Of a DNA stretch of 64,000 nt, positions 59,565 to 64,000 are shown one piece after another (positions within the stretch are counted from its first letter, which is position 1; the number at the start of each line of letters is the position of its first letter). The notes below the pieces were generated by a model that was not told where the DNA came from, ran no database searches, and worked only from the letters and a program-made list of their open reading frames with translations. Source of the DNA: Olsenella profusa (GTDB lineage: Bacteria; Actinomycetota; Coriobacteriia; Coriobacteriales; Atopobiaceae). The translations under genes were made by a program, and so were the position numbers. The stretch lies in the NCBI RefSeq assembly GCF_016900315.1, contig NZ_JACSNQ010000003.1, positions 124,001-188,000 on the forward strand, read 5' to 3'.

Positions 59565-60539
59565 ATGCCCATTAACATCCCGGATGGCCTGCCTGCCAAG
59601 AAGATCCTGCAGCAGGAGCGCATCTTCGCGCTTGAGGAGGAGGTGGCCAGCCACCAGGAGATTCGCCCCCTGCGCGTGGCGATCCTCAACCTCATGCCCA
59701 CCAAGATCGAGACGGAGACACAGATCCTGCGCCTCATCTCCAAGTCCCCGCTGCAGGTGAGCTGCGACTTCATGCGCGTCTCCACGCACGAGTCCACGCA
59801 CGTCTCCAAGGACCACCTGGTCAAGTTCTACGATACCTTCGACGCCTTCCGTGACAAGAACTACGACGGCCTCATCATCACCGGCGCGCCCGTGGAGCAC
59901 CTCGAGTACGAGGAGGTCGACTACTGGGACGAGTTCTGCGAGATCGTTGACTGGAGCCAGCAGCACGTCTTCTCGACGATGTTCCTCTGCTGGGGCGCCC
60001 TCGGCGCGCTCTGGCACCTCTATGGGATTCCCAAGCGCCCGCTGGGAGCCAAGCTCTTCGGCGTGTTCAAGCAGCGCCTCTGTGACGAATACAGCTTCCT
60101 CACCAACGGCTTCGACGAGGTCCACTACATGCCGCACAGCCGCCACGCCGCCATCGATACTGGCGAGCTCGCCAAGCACCCGGAGATCTGCGTGCTCTCC
60201 GAGGGCTTCACGAGCGGCCCGTCGCTTCTGGCCACGCGCGACTTCCACGAGGTCTACGTGACCGGCCACTTTGAGTACGGCCGCGACACCCTGGCCGACG
60301 AGTTCTGGCGCGACTTCCACAAGGGCCTGCCCATCCGCGTCCCGGAGAACTACTTCCCCGACGACGACCCCGAGCAACAGCCCCTCTTCACCTGGCGCGC
60401 CCACGCCAACCTGCTCTACCGCAACTGGCTCAACTGGGTCTACCAGATGACGCCCTACAACGTGGACGACATCCCCGCGGCCATCGCCGAGCTGCGCGCC
60501 CGCGCGACCGCCGCCACCGGTCACGTGGACAAGTTCTGA
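59565..60539 (+). CDS. metA: Homoserine O-acetyltransferase (MetA type)
   Basis: The protein has 324 residues. ATG at 59565 follows ACGGAGACGAC. Numbering matches the family directly: catalytic Cys is C142 (FLCWGALGAL), E111 lies in GAPVEHL, and the later HFEYGRDTL stretch has the catalytic His and Glu region. E. coli MetA has Gly at 111 and uses succinyl-CoA; Glu111 in Bacillus cereus gives acetyl-CoA specificity. I therefore call it homoserine O-acetyltransferase despite the usual succinyltransferase label. It activates homoserine for methionine synthesis. It is monocistronic and diverges from the helicase gene. Confidence 0.95.
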   Translation: MPINIPDGLPAKKILQQERIFALEEEVASHQEIRPLRVAILNLMPTKIETETQILRLISKSPLQVSCDFMRVSTHESTHVSKDHLVKFYDTFDAFRDKNYDGLIITGAPVEHLEYEEVDYWDEFCEIVDWSQQHVFSTMFLCWGALGALWHLYGIPKRPLGAKLFGVFKQRLCDEYSFLTNGFDEVHYMPHSRHAAIDTGELAKHPEICVLSEGFTSGPSLLATRDFHEVYVTGHFEYGRDTLADEFWRDFHKGLPIRVPENYFPDDDPEQQPLFTWRAHANLLYRNWLNWVYQMTPYNVDDIPAAIAELRARATAATGHVDKF

Positions 60540-60629
60540 GACAAAGGGGACAGGTTCCTTTGTCTCATCTCTATGACTTTGCCCTCTTTGTCTCACCGCC
60601 ATGCGACAAAGGAACCTGTCCCCTTTGAC
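60540..60629. repeat. Palindromic intergenic repeat, GGGGACAGGTTCC type
   Basis: Arms of 25 bp (60540-60564 and 60605-60629, one mismatch) flank a 40-bp centre. They contain GACAAAGGGGACAGGTTCC and its complement. The left arm begins one base after the metA stop. Hairpins of this type occur widely in anaerobes, often near RAYT-like transposases, none of which is here. It may end metA transcripts. Confidence 0.8.
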
Positions 60630-60652
60630 TCATGGCGGGAAGGAGCGAAGCC

Positions 60653-61093
60653 ATGGCGCAGGAACGACTGACCGAGGAGCTGCTCGAGCGTCTGCTGGCG
60701 GCCGAGCGTCCGGAGGCCTACCTCGACGAGGGCCTCACCATAGACCGCGACCTGCCTGACTATCTGCGCGAGCTGCTGGCGGAGAAGGGTCTCAAGCGCG
60801 CTGACGTGGTGCGCGCCTCGGGCCTCAACAGCACCTTCGTCTACGACGTCTTCCAGGGCAAGAGCCACATGGGGCGCGACAACGCCGTCATGCTGGCGCT
60901 GGGCCTGGGCTGCACGCTCATCGAGACCCAGCGGCTGCTGCGGCTGGACGGCGTCTCCGAGCTCTGGCCCAAGGTCCGGCGCGACGCCATCATCATCTGG
61001 TGCGTGGAGCACGGCCTCTCCCGCGTGGAGACCGACGACGAGCTCTACGCCCTCGGCGAGAAGCCCCTGCTGGGCACTGGCCCGCTGAAGTAG
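60653..61093 (+). CDS. XRE-like helix-turn-helix protein
   Basis: The protein has 146 residues. ATG at 60653 has AAGGAG about 9-10 bases upstream; an ATG at 60632 would overlap the palindromic repeat. A helical N-terminus (~1-45) leads to an HTH (LLAEKGLKRADVVRASGL, NSTFVYDVFQGKS, ~45-80). The C-terminal half has GLGCTLIETQRLLRLDGVSELWPKVRRDAI and a short acidic end. Small HTH proteins of this type sit beside Ser/Thr kinase genes in several anaerobes, as I recall, and one lies downstream at 62659 past the AAA gene. The stop codon is inside the left 40-bp direct repeat. Confidence 0.8.
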   Translation: MAQERLTEELLERLLAAERPEAYLDEGLTIDRDLPDYLRELLAEKGLKRADVVRASGLNSTFVYDVFQGKSHMGRDNAVMLALGLGCTLIETQRLLRLDGVSELWPKVRRDAIIIWCVEHGLSRVETDDELYALGEKPLLGTGPLK

Positions 61094-61126
61094 CGCCGCG
61101 GCGGCCGCCCGAGGTTCTTCTCGCCG
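61087..61126 (+). repeat. Left copy of 40-bp direct repeat flanking the AAA ATPase gene
   Basis: It is identical at 38 of 40 positions to 62512-62551. It starts at the last sense codons of the HTH gene (AAG-TAG stop at 61088-61093) and ends with an exact dispersed word (61114-61125). The AAA gene stop lies 2 bp further on. Confidence 0.9.
61114..61125 (-). repeat. Dispersed 12-bp word, exact copy
   Basis: GTTCTTCTCGCC ends the left 40-bp direct repeat, 4 bp from the AAA gene stop. Confidence 0.85.
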
Positions 61127-61128
61127 TG

Positions 61129-62367
61129 TTACAGATCCCCGTCGGAGGCCATGAGCTCGATGAGGTTGCGGTGCGTGACTCCGTCTCGCTCGAGGGGGAG
61201 CGGGTCGAGCGTGAGGAGGTACTGCGGATAGTTGTCGCGCACTTTGGAGAAGGGCCGGTACTCACGCTCCTCGACCGATTTGTCGGCAACGGTCATGGAT
61301 ACCTGGATGTAGCAGTAACCCTCGTCCGCTCTTCGCGCGATAAAGTCGACCTCGAGCCTTCCGATTTCCCCCACGCTTATCCGGTAGTCCTTGGATGCCA
61401 GGTACGTGAAGACCACGTTTTCGAGCAGGGGACCGTAATCCATCGTGGCGTTGACGTTGCGCGCGAAGTAGATGCCCGTGTCGGCGAGATAGTACTTCTC
61501 GCCTCCCTGAAGGGACCGCTTCGACTTCATGTCAAAGCGATTGCAGCGATAGAGCAGCTTGGCCTTCACGAGCAGGTCGATGTAGCTTGCAAGGGTTTCG
61601 CGCTTGATGGATATGCCCAGCGTGTTGTGCAGGTAGCTTGCCATCCCGGTTAGGTTTGTTGGCGCGGCGAAGTTGTTGATAACGTAGGTCATTACCTTCT
61701 CGAACGTCGAACGGTTGCGAATCTTGTGCCGAGACCGGATGTCCTTGTCGATGATCTGCCCGACGGCCTCCTCGACATATCGGGCCTTGGCCTGCGGATC
61801 GTCGTATTCAAGTGCCTTGGGAAAGCCGCCGTAGCGCAAAAAGTCACGGAAGAGCTGATGGACAGGGGCGGCGGGCTTGCCCAGGAACGCTCGCATCCCC
61901 AGGTATTCAGCAAACGAGAGCGTGAACATTTCTATCTCTACGTACCGTCCGGTGAGGTTGGTCATGAGCTCGCCTGAAAGCAGGTACGAGTTTGAGCCTG
62001 TGATGAACACGGAGAAGCCGCCGTCAGCGCGATAGGCGCCTACGACCTCCTCAAACCCCTCGACTCGCTGCACCTCGTCGATGAAGAGGTATATTGTGCC
62101 CTCGGCGGAGGGGGGCAGACGCTGCTCTATTGCCTCTTCCAGCTGGTCGGGCGTCCTCACGCTGCGCAGGCCGCGCCTCTCTAGGTCAAGATAGACGATG
62201 CTCTCCGCTGGGACGCCTCGTTCCTCCAGCTCGGCCGCCACCGTTTTCATGAGGCAGGACTTGCCGCAGCGACGGATTCCGGTTACCACCTTGATGATGT
62301 CCGTGTCCTCGACGAAGGGGCGAATCTTCTCGAGGTATGCCGTGCGTCGGTATAGAGGTTGGGTCAC
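61129..62367 (-). CDS. AAA ATPase with DUF4143 domain
   Basis: The protein has 412 residues. GTG at 62367 has AGAGGAAG 5-6 bases upstream. AAA_14 fold: Walker A G30-IRRCGKS (30-37), Walker B YLFIDEVQ (93-100), then FITGSNSYLLSGEL (sensor 1) and LTGRYVEIEMFTLSFAEYL. DUF4143 occupies ~205-385, with KYYLADTGIYFA and LLENVVFTYL, and a nuclease-like VDFIARR segment without a clear catalytic set. These stand-alone ATPases are widespread and often horizontally transferred; their role is not established. Base composition is lower in GC than neighbours, and it is flanked by 40-bp direct repeats, so I infer insertion between the HTH and kinase genes. Confidence 0.92.
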   Translation of the reverse strand: MTQPLYRRTAYLEKIRPFVEDTDIIKVVTGIRRCGKSCLMKTVAAELEERGVPAESIVYLDLERRGLRSVRTPDQLEEAIEQRLPPSAEGTIYLFIDEVQRVEGFEEVVGAYRADGGFSVFITGSNSYLLSGELMTNLTGRYVEIEMFTLSFAEYLGMRAFLGKPAAPVHQLFRDFLRYGGFPKALEYDDPQAKARYVEEAVGQIIDKDIRSRHKIRNRSTFEKVMTYVINNFAAPTNLTGMASYLHNTLGISIKRETLASYIDLLVKAKLLYRCNRFDMKSKRSLQGGEKYYLADTGIYFARNVNATMDYGPLLENVVFTYLASKDYRISVGEIGRLEVDFIARRADEGYCYIQVSMTVADKSVEEREYRPFSKVRDNYPQYLLTLDPLPLERDGVTHRNLIELMASDGDL

Positions 62368-62393
62368 GATGGCTTCCTCTCTAGTTATTTCAC

Positions 62394-62442
62394 GTTTAAG
62401 AGTAGCAAACTTATAAAAAATACAAAAGTGCTACCCTTAAAC
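62394..62442. promoter_or_regulatory. 14-bp inverted repeat around the AAA gene promoter
   Basis: GTTTAAGAGTAGCA (62394-62407) and TGCTACCCTTAAAC (62429-62442) pair with one mismatch across 21 bp of nearly pure A+T. It lies 27 bp upstream of the AAA start and would overlap its promoter, so an operator is likely. A terminal repeat of the inserted DNA is an alternative. Confidence 0.6.
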
Positions 62443-62511
62443 AGCCATTATCCCTTCATTCTGTTTGAGGCGCGACGAGTGGTGCGGGCGTTCTTTCGGG
62501 AGGCTTCCGCC

Positions 62512-62551
62512 GAAGTAGCGCCGAGGCGGCCGCCCGAGGTACTTCTCGCCG
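62512..62551 (+). repeat. Right copy of 40-bp direct repeat
   Basis: It repeats 61087-61126 with two substitutions. Its end carries a one-mismatch dispersed word (62539-62550). It includes a copy of the HTH gene's last codons (GAAG-TAG) with no gene in front. Confidence 0.9.
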
Positions 62552-62571: not shown

Positions 62572-62609
62572 ATTCAGTTGCCAGCTGAGGAATCAGTACC
62601 CAACTGAAT
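62572..62609. promoter_or_regulatory. 9-bp inverted repeat ahead of the kinase gene
   Basis: ATTCAGTTG (62572-62580) and CAACTGAAT (62601-62609) are perfect complements 20 bp apart. They lie just before TAGTAT (62618-62623), a possible -10 for the kinase gene, so an operator is plausible. Confidence 0.5.
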
Positions 62610-62658
62610 ATACCCTCTAGTATTGTTATGACGCCGAGGAGCAAACGAGGTAGAGCGG

Positions 62659-64000
62659 GTGAACGACCAGCAGGTCATGCATGCCATGAACATCGATGAC
62701 GCCTATCACGTCGAACGCACGCTCGCCAGCGGGATGGGCGGCGTGACCGAGCTCGTCACGCTGGACGGGTCCGGCCCGTTCGTCCGCAAGCGCATCCCCT
62801 CCAAGCTCGCACGCCGCGGCGTGTGGGTCATGCTTGCCGAGTGCGCCTGCCCGCGCCTGCCGCACGTTGAGGCAACCTACGAGATGCCGGACGAGTTCGT
62901 GGTGGTCTGCGACTACGTCCCCGGGCAGAACCTCGAGGAGCTCGTGCGCTCGTCCGGCCGCATGGGCGAGAAGGACGCGCGCCAGATCGTCTCCCAGCTC
63001 TGCGAGGCCGCGGGCGCGCTCCACGCGCACAACATCGTTCACCGCGACATCTCCCCGCGCAACGTGATCGTTGCTGCCGACGGCGCCCACCTCATCGACC
63101 TGGGGATCGCGCGCTTCAGGTCGGAGGACGCCACGCACGACACCACCCAGCTCGGGACCGTGGGCTTTGCCTCGCCCGAGCAGCACGGCTTTGCCCAGAC
63201 CGACGCCCGCTCCGACGTCTACTCGATAGGCCGCGTGCTCGGCTACCTGCTCACCGGCGTCATGCCCGAGGTTCCCGACGCCGCCGACTACGAGCGCGCC
63301 CTGTCGGACGAGGGGGTCGTGTCCCCGAGGATGCGCGCGGTCATCGACCGTGCGTGCGCCCTTGAGCCGAGCGCCCGCTTCCAGAGCGCCGCGGAGCTTG
63401 CCGACGCGCTTTCTGGAAAGGGGGAGCCCTCATCCAGCAGCGCCCCTACGTCCGGCGAGAAGAACTTGGGAGCGCCGCCCGCCCCGGTCTCCCCGGTGAC
63501 GTCTCCGGCGCCGCGCGCCGCGTCGGGCGGTCGGGGCGGGGCCTCCCTTGTGCGGGTGGTGGGCGGCCTGGTGGTCCTTCTCGCCCTTTTGGCGGGAATC
63601 GTATTGGTTCTGCAGGGGACCGGCGTGCTTGAGATGGTTTTGGGTGCCGGCGACACGGCGCAGTCCTCGCAGCCTGCTCAGCCCGATCGGTCGACCGGCC
63701 AGGGCGACGCGGCGGGGGCCGGGGCCACCGGCGGCTCCGTAACGGACGCTCCCGTCCCTGTTGAGAACCCGCTTGAGGTTGTGGAGTCCGGCTGGTCCGT
63801 GGACGGCCAGGGGTTTGTCCACTACGCGTTTGGGCTGCGCAACAACGGCGATCTGCAGGTCCTGTACCCCGGCGTGACCGTTACGGGGCGCGACGCCTCG
63901 GGCGGGGTGCTCTTCTCGCAGGAGCAGATCCTCTCGGTTGTGCCTGCGGGCCAGACGGTTTACTTCAGCTCCCTTGCGGGTTCGGGCTCCGTGCCCGAGA
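62659..64000 (+). CDS. Membrane Ser/Thr protein kinase (partial, runs off the right edge)
   Basis: There are 447 residues in this window from GTG at 62659, with GAGG 8-9 bases upstream; the frame stays open to the edge. The kinase domain (~15-255) has a Gly-rich loop (ASGMGGVTELV), K44 (VRKRI), VHRDISPRN (D130, N135) and IDLGIAR (D147-LG in place of DFG), then TVGFASPEQ. All catalytic residues are present. A Pro/Ala/Ser linker contains SGEKNL, encoded by an exact dispersed word. A membrane helix lies at ~298-319. The external part has YAFGLRNNGDLQVLYPGVTVTG, a beta-rich FxLxN-type domain that may sense ligand. The HTH gene at 60653 is a likely partner. Confidence 0.93.
   Translation, partial: MNDQQVMHAMNIDDAYHVERTLASGMGGVTELVTLDGSGPFVRKRIPSKLARRGVWVMLAECACPRLPHVEATYEMPDEFVVVCDYVPGQNLEELVRSSGRMGEKDARQIVSQLCEAAGALHAHNIVHRDISPRNVIVAADGAHLIDLGIARFRSEDATHDTTQLGTVGFASPEQHGFAQTDARSDVYSIGRVLGYLLTGVMPEVPDAADYERALSDEGVVSPRMRAVIDRACALEPSARFQSAAELADALSGKGEPSSSSAPTSGEKNLGAPPAPVSPVTSPAPRAASGGRGGASLVRVVGGLVVLLALLAGIVLVLQGTGVLEMVLGAGDTAQSSQPAQPDRSTGQGDAAGAGATGGSVTDAPVPVENPLEVVESGWSVDGQGFVHYAFGLRNNGDLQVLYPGVTVTGRDASGGVLFSQEQILSVVPAGQTVYFSSLAGSGSVPE
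63454..63465 (+). repeat. Dispersed 12-bp word, exact copy, within coding sequence
   Basis: GGCGAGAAGAAC is read in frame as GEKN in the juxtamembrane linker of the kinase. Confidence 0.85.

What the first reader, a model, noticed from the sequence alone, without database searches (positions are those of the whole stretch)
61087..62551. AAA ATPase gene bracketed by 40-bp direct repeats, splitting an HTH-kinase pair
38 of 40 positions match. The left copy overlaps the end and stop codon of the HTH gene; the right copy carries the same last codons with no gene before it. The AAA gene stop is 2 bp from the left repeat, and the inserted 1.4 kb has lower GC. Duplication of a gene 3' end around cargo is reminiscent of site-specific integration, but there is no integrase. 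Each repeat ends in the dispersed word, so uptake plus duplication-type recombination is another route.
Basis: partly seen in the sequence, partly recalled or inferred. Interest (0 to 1): 0.66.

Follow-up and report, generated by a model that had tools for sequence, protein, structure and literature searches.

The report
Single-gene insertion with 45-bp target duplication
A single foreign gene for a candidate anti-phage ATPase has been inserted between two normally adjacent bacterial genes, duplicating 45 bases of the neighbouring gene's end; the most likely cause is an imprecise DNA-recombination event of a known type rather than a new mobile element, although the same scar turns up at two other single-gene insertions in the same genus.

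Summary
A 45-bp direct repeat (42/45 identical; 61082-61126 and 62507-62551) brackets a 1,380-bp, low-GC insert holding one AAA_14-DUF4143 ATPase gene and its promoter. In 31 other genomes of the genus, family and order the HTH and kinase genes are direct neighbours, so this is an insertion. It leaves both genes and the conserved block upstream of the kinase intact.

The repeat does not look like the signature of a site-specific element: no integrase on the 198-kb contig, no other element at this site, and the closest homologues of the gene (64-84% identity) sit elsewhere without long repeats.

The genus supplies two parallel cases with empty alleles: a related AAA gene at a DUF2200 gene end (45-bp duplication) and a RhuM-Fic gene (110 bp, 98%). 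In both, a sister species carries the same cargo at the same place without the duplication. That points to one-sided recombination (homology at one end, illegitimate joint at the other) while cargo passes between strains; for the window itself this is inferred.

The wider AAA clade clusters at the 3' end of guaA, a known island site. Known kind of event; modest interest.

The parts
61082..61126 (+). Left copy of the 45-bp direct repeat; starts in the HTH gene's last codons and ends with the dispersed word
   Evidence: (42/45 identical to the right copy)
62507..62551 (+). Right copy of the 45-bp direct repeat, an orphan copy of the HTH gene end, continuous with the native region upstream of the kinase gene
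61127..62506 (.). Inserted 1,380-bp segment (AAA gene plus about 140 bp upstream)
   Evidence: absent from the HTH-kinase interval of 31 other genomes; the insert's upstream 139 bp found nowhere else in 31 genus genomes
61129..62367 (-). AAA_14 + DUF4143 ATPase gene, 412 aa, GTG start; PADLOC candidate defence family PDC-S01
   Evidence: AlphaFold2 model pLDDT 89.7, closest solved folds archaeal ATPases 2fna and 2qen
62394..62442 (-). Promoter/operator region of the AAA gene: inverted repeat GTTTAAGGGTAGCACTTT...GCTACTCTTAAAC; homology to Olsenella sp. Marseille-P4559 begins about here
   Evidence: sequence; alignment to L222
60632..61093 (+). HTH (Cro/C1-type, HTH_26) gene, intact
   Evidence: homologues
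62659..64000 (+). Ser/Thr protein kinase gene (runs off the window)
62572..62612 (+). Conserved palindromic block ATTCAGTTGCCAGCTGAGGAATCAGTACCCAACTGAATATA upstream of the kinase gene, left intact by the insertion
   Evidence: present in nearly all same-genus relatives at the same place
61111..61126 (+). Dispersed word GAGGTTCTTCTCGCCG at the end of the left repeat (variant GAGGTACTTCTCGCCG at 62536-62551)

Best explanation
A 1.38-kb module consisting of one AAA_14-DUF4143 ATPase gene and its promoter was acquired laterally and lodged between the 3' end of an HTH gene and the upstream region of the kinase gene. The 45-bp direct repeat is a scar of the recombination event. Incoming DNA paired by homology on the HTH side (gene end and dispersed word), and its other end was joined illegitimately a few dozen bases upstream, inside the HTH gene end, so that this stretch was kept twice (homology-facilitated illegitimate recombination or an equivalent template switch). 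The result leaves HTH, kinase and the block upstream of the kinase intact, which favours its survival. Shown: the insertion, the duplication, absence of an integrase on the contig, intact pairs in relatives, and two parallel cases in the genus. Inferred: the one-sided recombination step and the route of entry (a ComEC gene is present, so natural transformation is possible). The gene is best read as defence-type cargo, not as its own mobilizer.
For: Intact HTH-kinase pairs in 31 other genomes. Parallel 1: in two species an AAA gene at a DUF2200 gene end has a 45-bp duplication (45/45 in one, 44/45 in the other), with seven single-copy empty alleles, one about 99% identical to the right flank over 108 bp. 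Parallel 2: a RhuM-Fic gene with a 110-bp, 98% duplication of the upstream gene's 3' end, and many empty alleles. In both parallels a sister species holds the same cargo in the same place without the duplication (L130, L198). For RhuM-Fic the repeat copies are 98% alike against 87% between the species over that stretch, so the scar is probably younger than the cargo's residence there. At the DUF2200 site the novel joint reads TTGTT-GCCCGC-GGGC where the scar-free allele reads TTGTT-GCCCGC-ACAC and the target reads GCTC-GCCCGC-GGGC: 6 bp of microhomology. No integrase on the contig; ComEC present.
Against: No donor allele (HTH-AAA-kinase without a repeat) was found for the window itself, so microhomology at its own joint cannot be read. 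Two independent AAA cases both have 45 bp, which a fixed-stagger mechanism would predict. A scar-free allele could also arise from a scarred one by later loss of a repeat. No strain-level genomes were available. Competence has not been shown in this group.
Confidence: 0.55

Rival explanations
1. Integrase-less site-specific element: the 45-mer is attL/attR at the HTH gene 3' end, and the module was moved by an integrase supplied in trans.
For: Gene-3'-end duplication is the usual att geometry. Relatives of this AAA gene sit at the guaA 3' end, a known integrase target, often beside orphan copies of the guaA end (PMC9376610).
Against: No integrase on the contig. 31 other genomes have nothing at this site. 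The parallel duplications at DUF2200 and RhuM-Fic sites have unrelated sequences. Sister alleles at those sites lack the repeats.
Confidence: 0.17
2. Staggered-break insertion: the module was joined into a break with ends about 45 nt apart and fill-in made a true target-site duplication, possibly with the DUF4143 nuclease-like domain making the cuts.
For: 45 bp in two independent AAA insertions (window and DUF2200 site). Clean 45-bp duplication against an empty allele. Predicted C-terminal alpha/beta domain with invariant E316, D341, Q355.
Against: The RhuM-Fic case is 110 bp and has no AAA gene. Close AAA homologues at other sites show no such duplication. The conserved motif lacks the usual catalytic lysine (sequence). 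No conserved ends flank the gene.
Confidence: 0.13
3. Campbell-type integration of a circle that already carried a short piece of the HTH gene end, by a single homologous crossover.
For: Gives direct repeats of any length and lets the copies differ from the start, as here (42/45).
Against: Needs a circle with a pre-captured gene end at each different site. 45 bp is short for a RecA crossover. No plasmid or phage gene is in the insert.
Confidence: 0.1
4. Chance similarity or assembly artefact: two copies of a dispersed intergenic repeat happen to flank the gene.
For: The last 16-17 bp of the repeat are a dispersed word.
Against: The other 28 bp, including the HTH gene's last codons, match nowhere else in the genome at this level. 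The copies are not identical, so no long identical k-mer could cause a false join.
Confidence: 0.03

Closest known systems
Homology-facilitated illegitimate recombination (described in Acinetobacter, Streptococcus, Pseudomonas stutzeri; proposed for Vibrio cholerae T6SS module insertion, PMC5361080, and for small variable segments in E. coli, PMC2884548)
   Same: One homologous end, one illegitimate end, single-module insertions in otherwise conserved gene neighbourhoods, retained 3' gene remnants
   Different: Here the remnant is a short 45- to 110-bp duplication of an upstream gene end beside a single cargo gene; the process itself has not been shown in this bacterium
guaA-3'-end genomic islands (e.g. 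GIsul2, PMC9376610)
   Same: AAA_14-DUF4143 genes of the same clade are the first gene after guaA, or follow orphan guaA ends, in this genus and order
   Different: The window copy is not at guaA, has no guaA core beside it, and its repeat is of the HTH gene end
PADLOC candidate defence family PDC-S01 / Pfam AAA_14 + DUF4143
   Same: Full-length match, E = 1.2e-134; Pfam domains over cut-off
   Different: No difference in the protein; function of the family untested as far as found

Membership tests
Tyrosine-recombinase genomic island / integrative element | Encodes or lies beside an integrase | tested here: not met
   None in the insert; genome's PF00589 hits are on contigs C11, C55 and C42, not on C31
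Tyrosine-recombinase genomic island / integrative element | Fixed attB used by the element family | tested here: not met
   Site empty in 31 other genomes; homologues of the gene sit at other places
Tyrosine-recombinase genomic island / integrative element | Excision and circular form | not testable with these tools
   Needs reads or PCR
Insertion sequence / transposon | Transposase plus terminal inverted repeats and short target duplication | tested here: not met
   Only one gene, an AAA_14-DUF4143 ATPase; insert ends 2 bp beyond the stop codon; duplication 45 bp
Insertion by homology-facilitated illegitimate recombination | Homology to the target on one side, novel joint with short microhomology on the other | tested here: inconclusive
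   6-bp microhomology at the parallel DUF2200 joint; no donor allele for the window
Insertion by homology-facilitated illegitimate recombination | Empty allele and scar-free occupied allele both exist | tested here: inconclusive
   Both exist for the two parallel cases; only empty alleles for the window
guaA-3'-end island cargo | guaA 3'-end core ATCGAGTGGGAATA beside the cargo | tested here: not met
   No match within 2 mismatches in the locus (L100)
AAA_14-DUF4143 ATPase (PDC-S01) | Walker A/B AAA_14 domain followed by DUF4143 | tested here: met
Active PD-(D/E)XK nuclease | Complete catalytic motif including lysine | tested here: inconclusive
   E316, D341 and Q355 invariant, but the expected lysine is not conserved in the aligned family; that DUF4143 belongs to this superfamily is from general knowledge, not tested here

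The most novel reading that the evidence does not exclude
AAA_14-DUF4143 proteins, an AAA+ ATPase joined to a nuclease-like domain, are minimal one-gene mobile elements that insert themselves at gene 3' ends (guaA, HTH, DUF2200) and leave about 45-bp target duplications, without any transposase or integrase.
Probability: 0.05. Interest if true: 0.85.

Novelty: new member of a known kind. Interest (0 to 1): 0.36.

Why it matters
It is a clean example of how single defence-type genes enter core gene neighbourhoods without mobile-element machinery, and the genus offers natural empty, scarred and scar-free alleles of comparable insertions, so the joining step can be studied by sequence alone. It also shows that AAA_14-DUF4143 genes, which are hardly mentioned in the papers searched, are recurrent occupants of the guaA hotspot in these Actinobacteria. 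If strain data showed a constant 45-bp duplication for this gene family, it would point to a new insertion mechanism.

Tried and rejected
(1) Repeats as a general property of AAA genes: 7 of 39 AAA loci in the genus scored for flanking repeats against 2 of 137 other genes, but inspection removed most. L098 is an AraC fragment, L112 is a dispersed intergenic repeat shared with L097, L076 contains orphan guaA-end sequence, L120 looks like a degraded AAA-type gene, and L118 and L094 are unclear. Only the window and the DUF2200 case remain as clean AAA examples, so the enrichment is not claimed. (2) No long repeats flank the AAA genes found across the order, apart from two weak pairs, or the closest homologues in named genomes. 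(3) Second copy of the insert's upstream DNA in 31 genus genomes: none. (4) Solved-structure match by sequence: none. (5) Other insertions at the HTH-kinase site in the family: none seen; one genome (L184) has a 430-bp gap that was not examined further. (6) Literature for DUF4143, AAA_14, COG1373 as mobile genes: nothing relevant.

Full report
Observation. The left copy begins in the last four codons (stop included) of the HTH gene, whose stop codon ends at 61093. The right copy has the same codons but no reading frame before it. Between them lie 1,380 bp with one gene, 61129-62367 on the minus strand, whose stop codon is 2 bp from the left repeat. Gene GC is 0.59 against 0.65-0.69 outside. 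The gene encodes AAA_14 plus DUF4143 and matches the PADLOC candidate defence family PDC-S01 over its whole length. The repeat's last 16-17 bp are a word found at dozens of mostly intergenic places, but the full 45-mer occurs only here.

It is an insertion. The HTH gene has homologues across the genus and family. In 31 genomes where both genes lie in the fetched locus (L002-L020 and L181-L192), the kinase follows directly, usually 95-184 bp downstream; one genome has 430 bp, and a few have shorter gaps. Nearly all same-genus relatives carry a palindromic block (TTCAGTTGC-AACTGAGGAATCAGT) upstream of the kinase, and the window keeps it to the right of the right repeat. So the insert spares both genes and that block. 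The insertion is found in 1 of 32 genomes, and no other element was seen at the site.

Is the repeat a property of the AAA gene? In the genus, flanking repeats were scored at 7 of 39 AAA genes and 2 of 137 control genes. On inspection most of these are other things: an AraC fragment, a dispersed repeat, orphan guaA ends, and a degraded AAA-type gene. Across the order, AAA genes related to the window's have no long flanking repeats apart from two weak pairs. The closest relatives in named genomes, Olsenella sp. Marseille-P4559 at 84% and others at 72-77%, have none either. With the Olsenella gene, homology to the insert covers the promoter and gene only, with nothing shared beyond. So the repeat belongs to the event, not to the gene.

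Parallel cases. Two single-gene insertions in the same genus carry the same kind of scar and can be compared with empty alleles. First, in two species (G013, G014) an AAA gene about 37% identical to the window's sits at the 3' end of a DUF2200 gene, between copies of GCCCGCGGGCGCGCCATGGAGAAGATCCTGCGCTCGTAGCCGCCG: 45/45 in one species and 44/45 in the other. Seven other species have a single copy continuous with the same right flank, one of them about 99% identical to it over 108 bp. Second, in G006 a RhuM-Fic gene sits between 110-bp copies (98%) of the 3' end of a membrane-protein gene; many species have the single-copy empty arrangement. In each case a sister species carries the same cargo at the same place without the duplication: L130 for the AAA gene and L198 for RhuM-Fic. 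In the RhuM-Fic case the two repeat copies are far more alike (98%) than the two species are (87% over the same stretch), so the scar is probably young compared with the cargo. Gene conversion or later loss of a repeat could also contribute.

Mechanism. This pattern fits transfer of an occupied allele into an empty one with homology on the upstream-gene side and an illegitimate joint on the other. If the joint falls inside the end of the upstream gene, that end is kept twice. At the DUF2200 site the joint can be read: scar-free allele ...ATTGTTGCCCGCACAC..., target ...GAGCTCGCCCGCGGGC..., scarred allele ...ATTGTTGCCCGCGGGC..., with 6 bp of microhomology. For the window the same route is inferred; no donor allele was found, so its own joint cannot be read. 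The dispersed word at the end of the repeat could have served as part of the homologous side; this is a suggestion only. The genome encodes ComEC, so uptake of DNA is possible but not shown. Published precedents for one-sided joining are in PMC5361080 and PMC2884548.

Rivals. A site-specific element is disfavoured: the genome's tyrosine recombinases are on other contigs, the site is otherwise unused, and the three scars share no evident sequence. A staggered-break origin with a fixed 45-nt stagger is suggested by the two 45-bp cases, but the 110-bp case and the repeat-free homologues speak against it. An artefact is unlikely given the non-identical copies and the intact neighbours.

The AAA protein. 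The predicted model is confident (pLDDT 89.7). Its best matches among solved structures are the archaeal ATPases 2fna and 2qen, and it has an alpha/beta C-terminal domain. Invariant residues include Walker A and B positions, E316, D341 and Q355; the usual catalytic lysine of PD-(D/E)XK nucleases is not conserved in the aligned motif, so nuclease activity is uncertain. Relatives of the gene are concentrated at the guaA 3' end. In 8 of 26 genus genomes with readable sequence, an AAA_14-DUF4143 gene is the next gene after guaA, about 100 bp downstream; elsewhere in the order such genes follow orphan copies of the guaA end. guaA is a known integrase target (PMC9376610). The window's own genome has a guaA region with further AAA genes on contig C42. 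Hence the gene family behaves as mobile cargo, and the window copy is a member lodged at an unusual site.

Verdict. A real insertion with a real duplication, best explained as a recombination scar around single-gene cargo. It is a member of a known kind of event, with a useful natural series of alleles in the genus.

Noticed in passing
L074, L077-L081, L023, L160-L169, L247-L272: guaA 3' end is a cargo hotspot in this genus and order: AAA_14-DUF4143 genes (two subfamilies) stand about 100 bp after guaA or after orphan copies of its last 14 bp, with Gabija-like and DUF262-like genes further along.
   Followed up: partly
G010:C30:83766-84689, G024:C22:97136-98056, G002:C1:163046-163963 and others: Many genomes of the genus carry a second, shorter GuaA-like gene (C-terminal domain only, about 56% identical), in some genomes 7-35 kb downstream of guaA in the same orientation, possibly marking the far end of a guaA island.
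   Followed up: no
window 18218, 20997, 30408, 42683, 58074, 61115 and others: Word GTTCTTCTCGCC (reverse GGCGAGAAGAAC) is strongly repeated, often intergenic, and sometimes in inverted pairs (20997; L064), reminiscent of uptake-sequence pairs that double as terminators.
   Followed up: partly
L071 972-2311 (G006): RhuM-Fic gene between 110-bp direct repeats of the upstream gene's 3' end; empty and repeat-free occupied alleles exist in sister species.
   Followed up: yes
L097 4019-5264, L112 5733-7456: A dispersed intergenic repeat of 85-150 bp with GTTGTGCGCACTT-type units occurs in pairs around genes.
   Followed up: no
window 60537-60632: Long inverted repeat TGAGACAAAGGGGACAGGTTCCTTTGTCTCAT before the HTH gene; related GGGGACTGTCCCC palindromes occur at other intergenic places (L071, L132).
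   Followed up: no
L240 (Pauljensenia hongkongensis chromosome): A partial copy 84% identical to the window's AAA protein occurs in a member of another actinobacterial lineage, a sign of transfer across distant groups.
   Followed up: no
window 62572-62612: Conserved palindromic block upstream of the kinase gene, with a similar 21-bp copy after the kinase in L100; perhaps the operator of the HTH protein.
   Followed up: no
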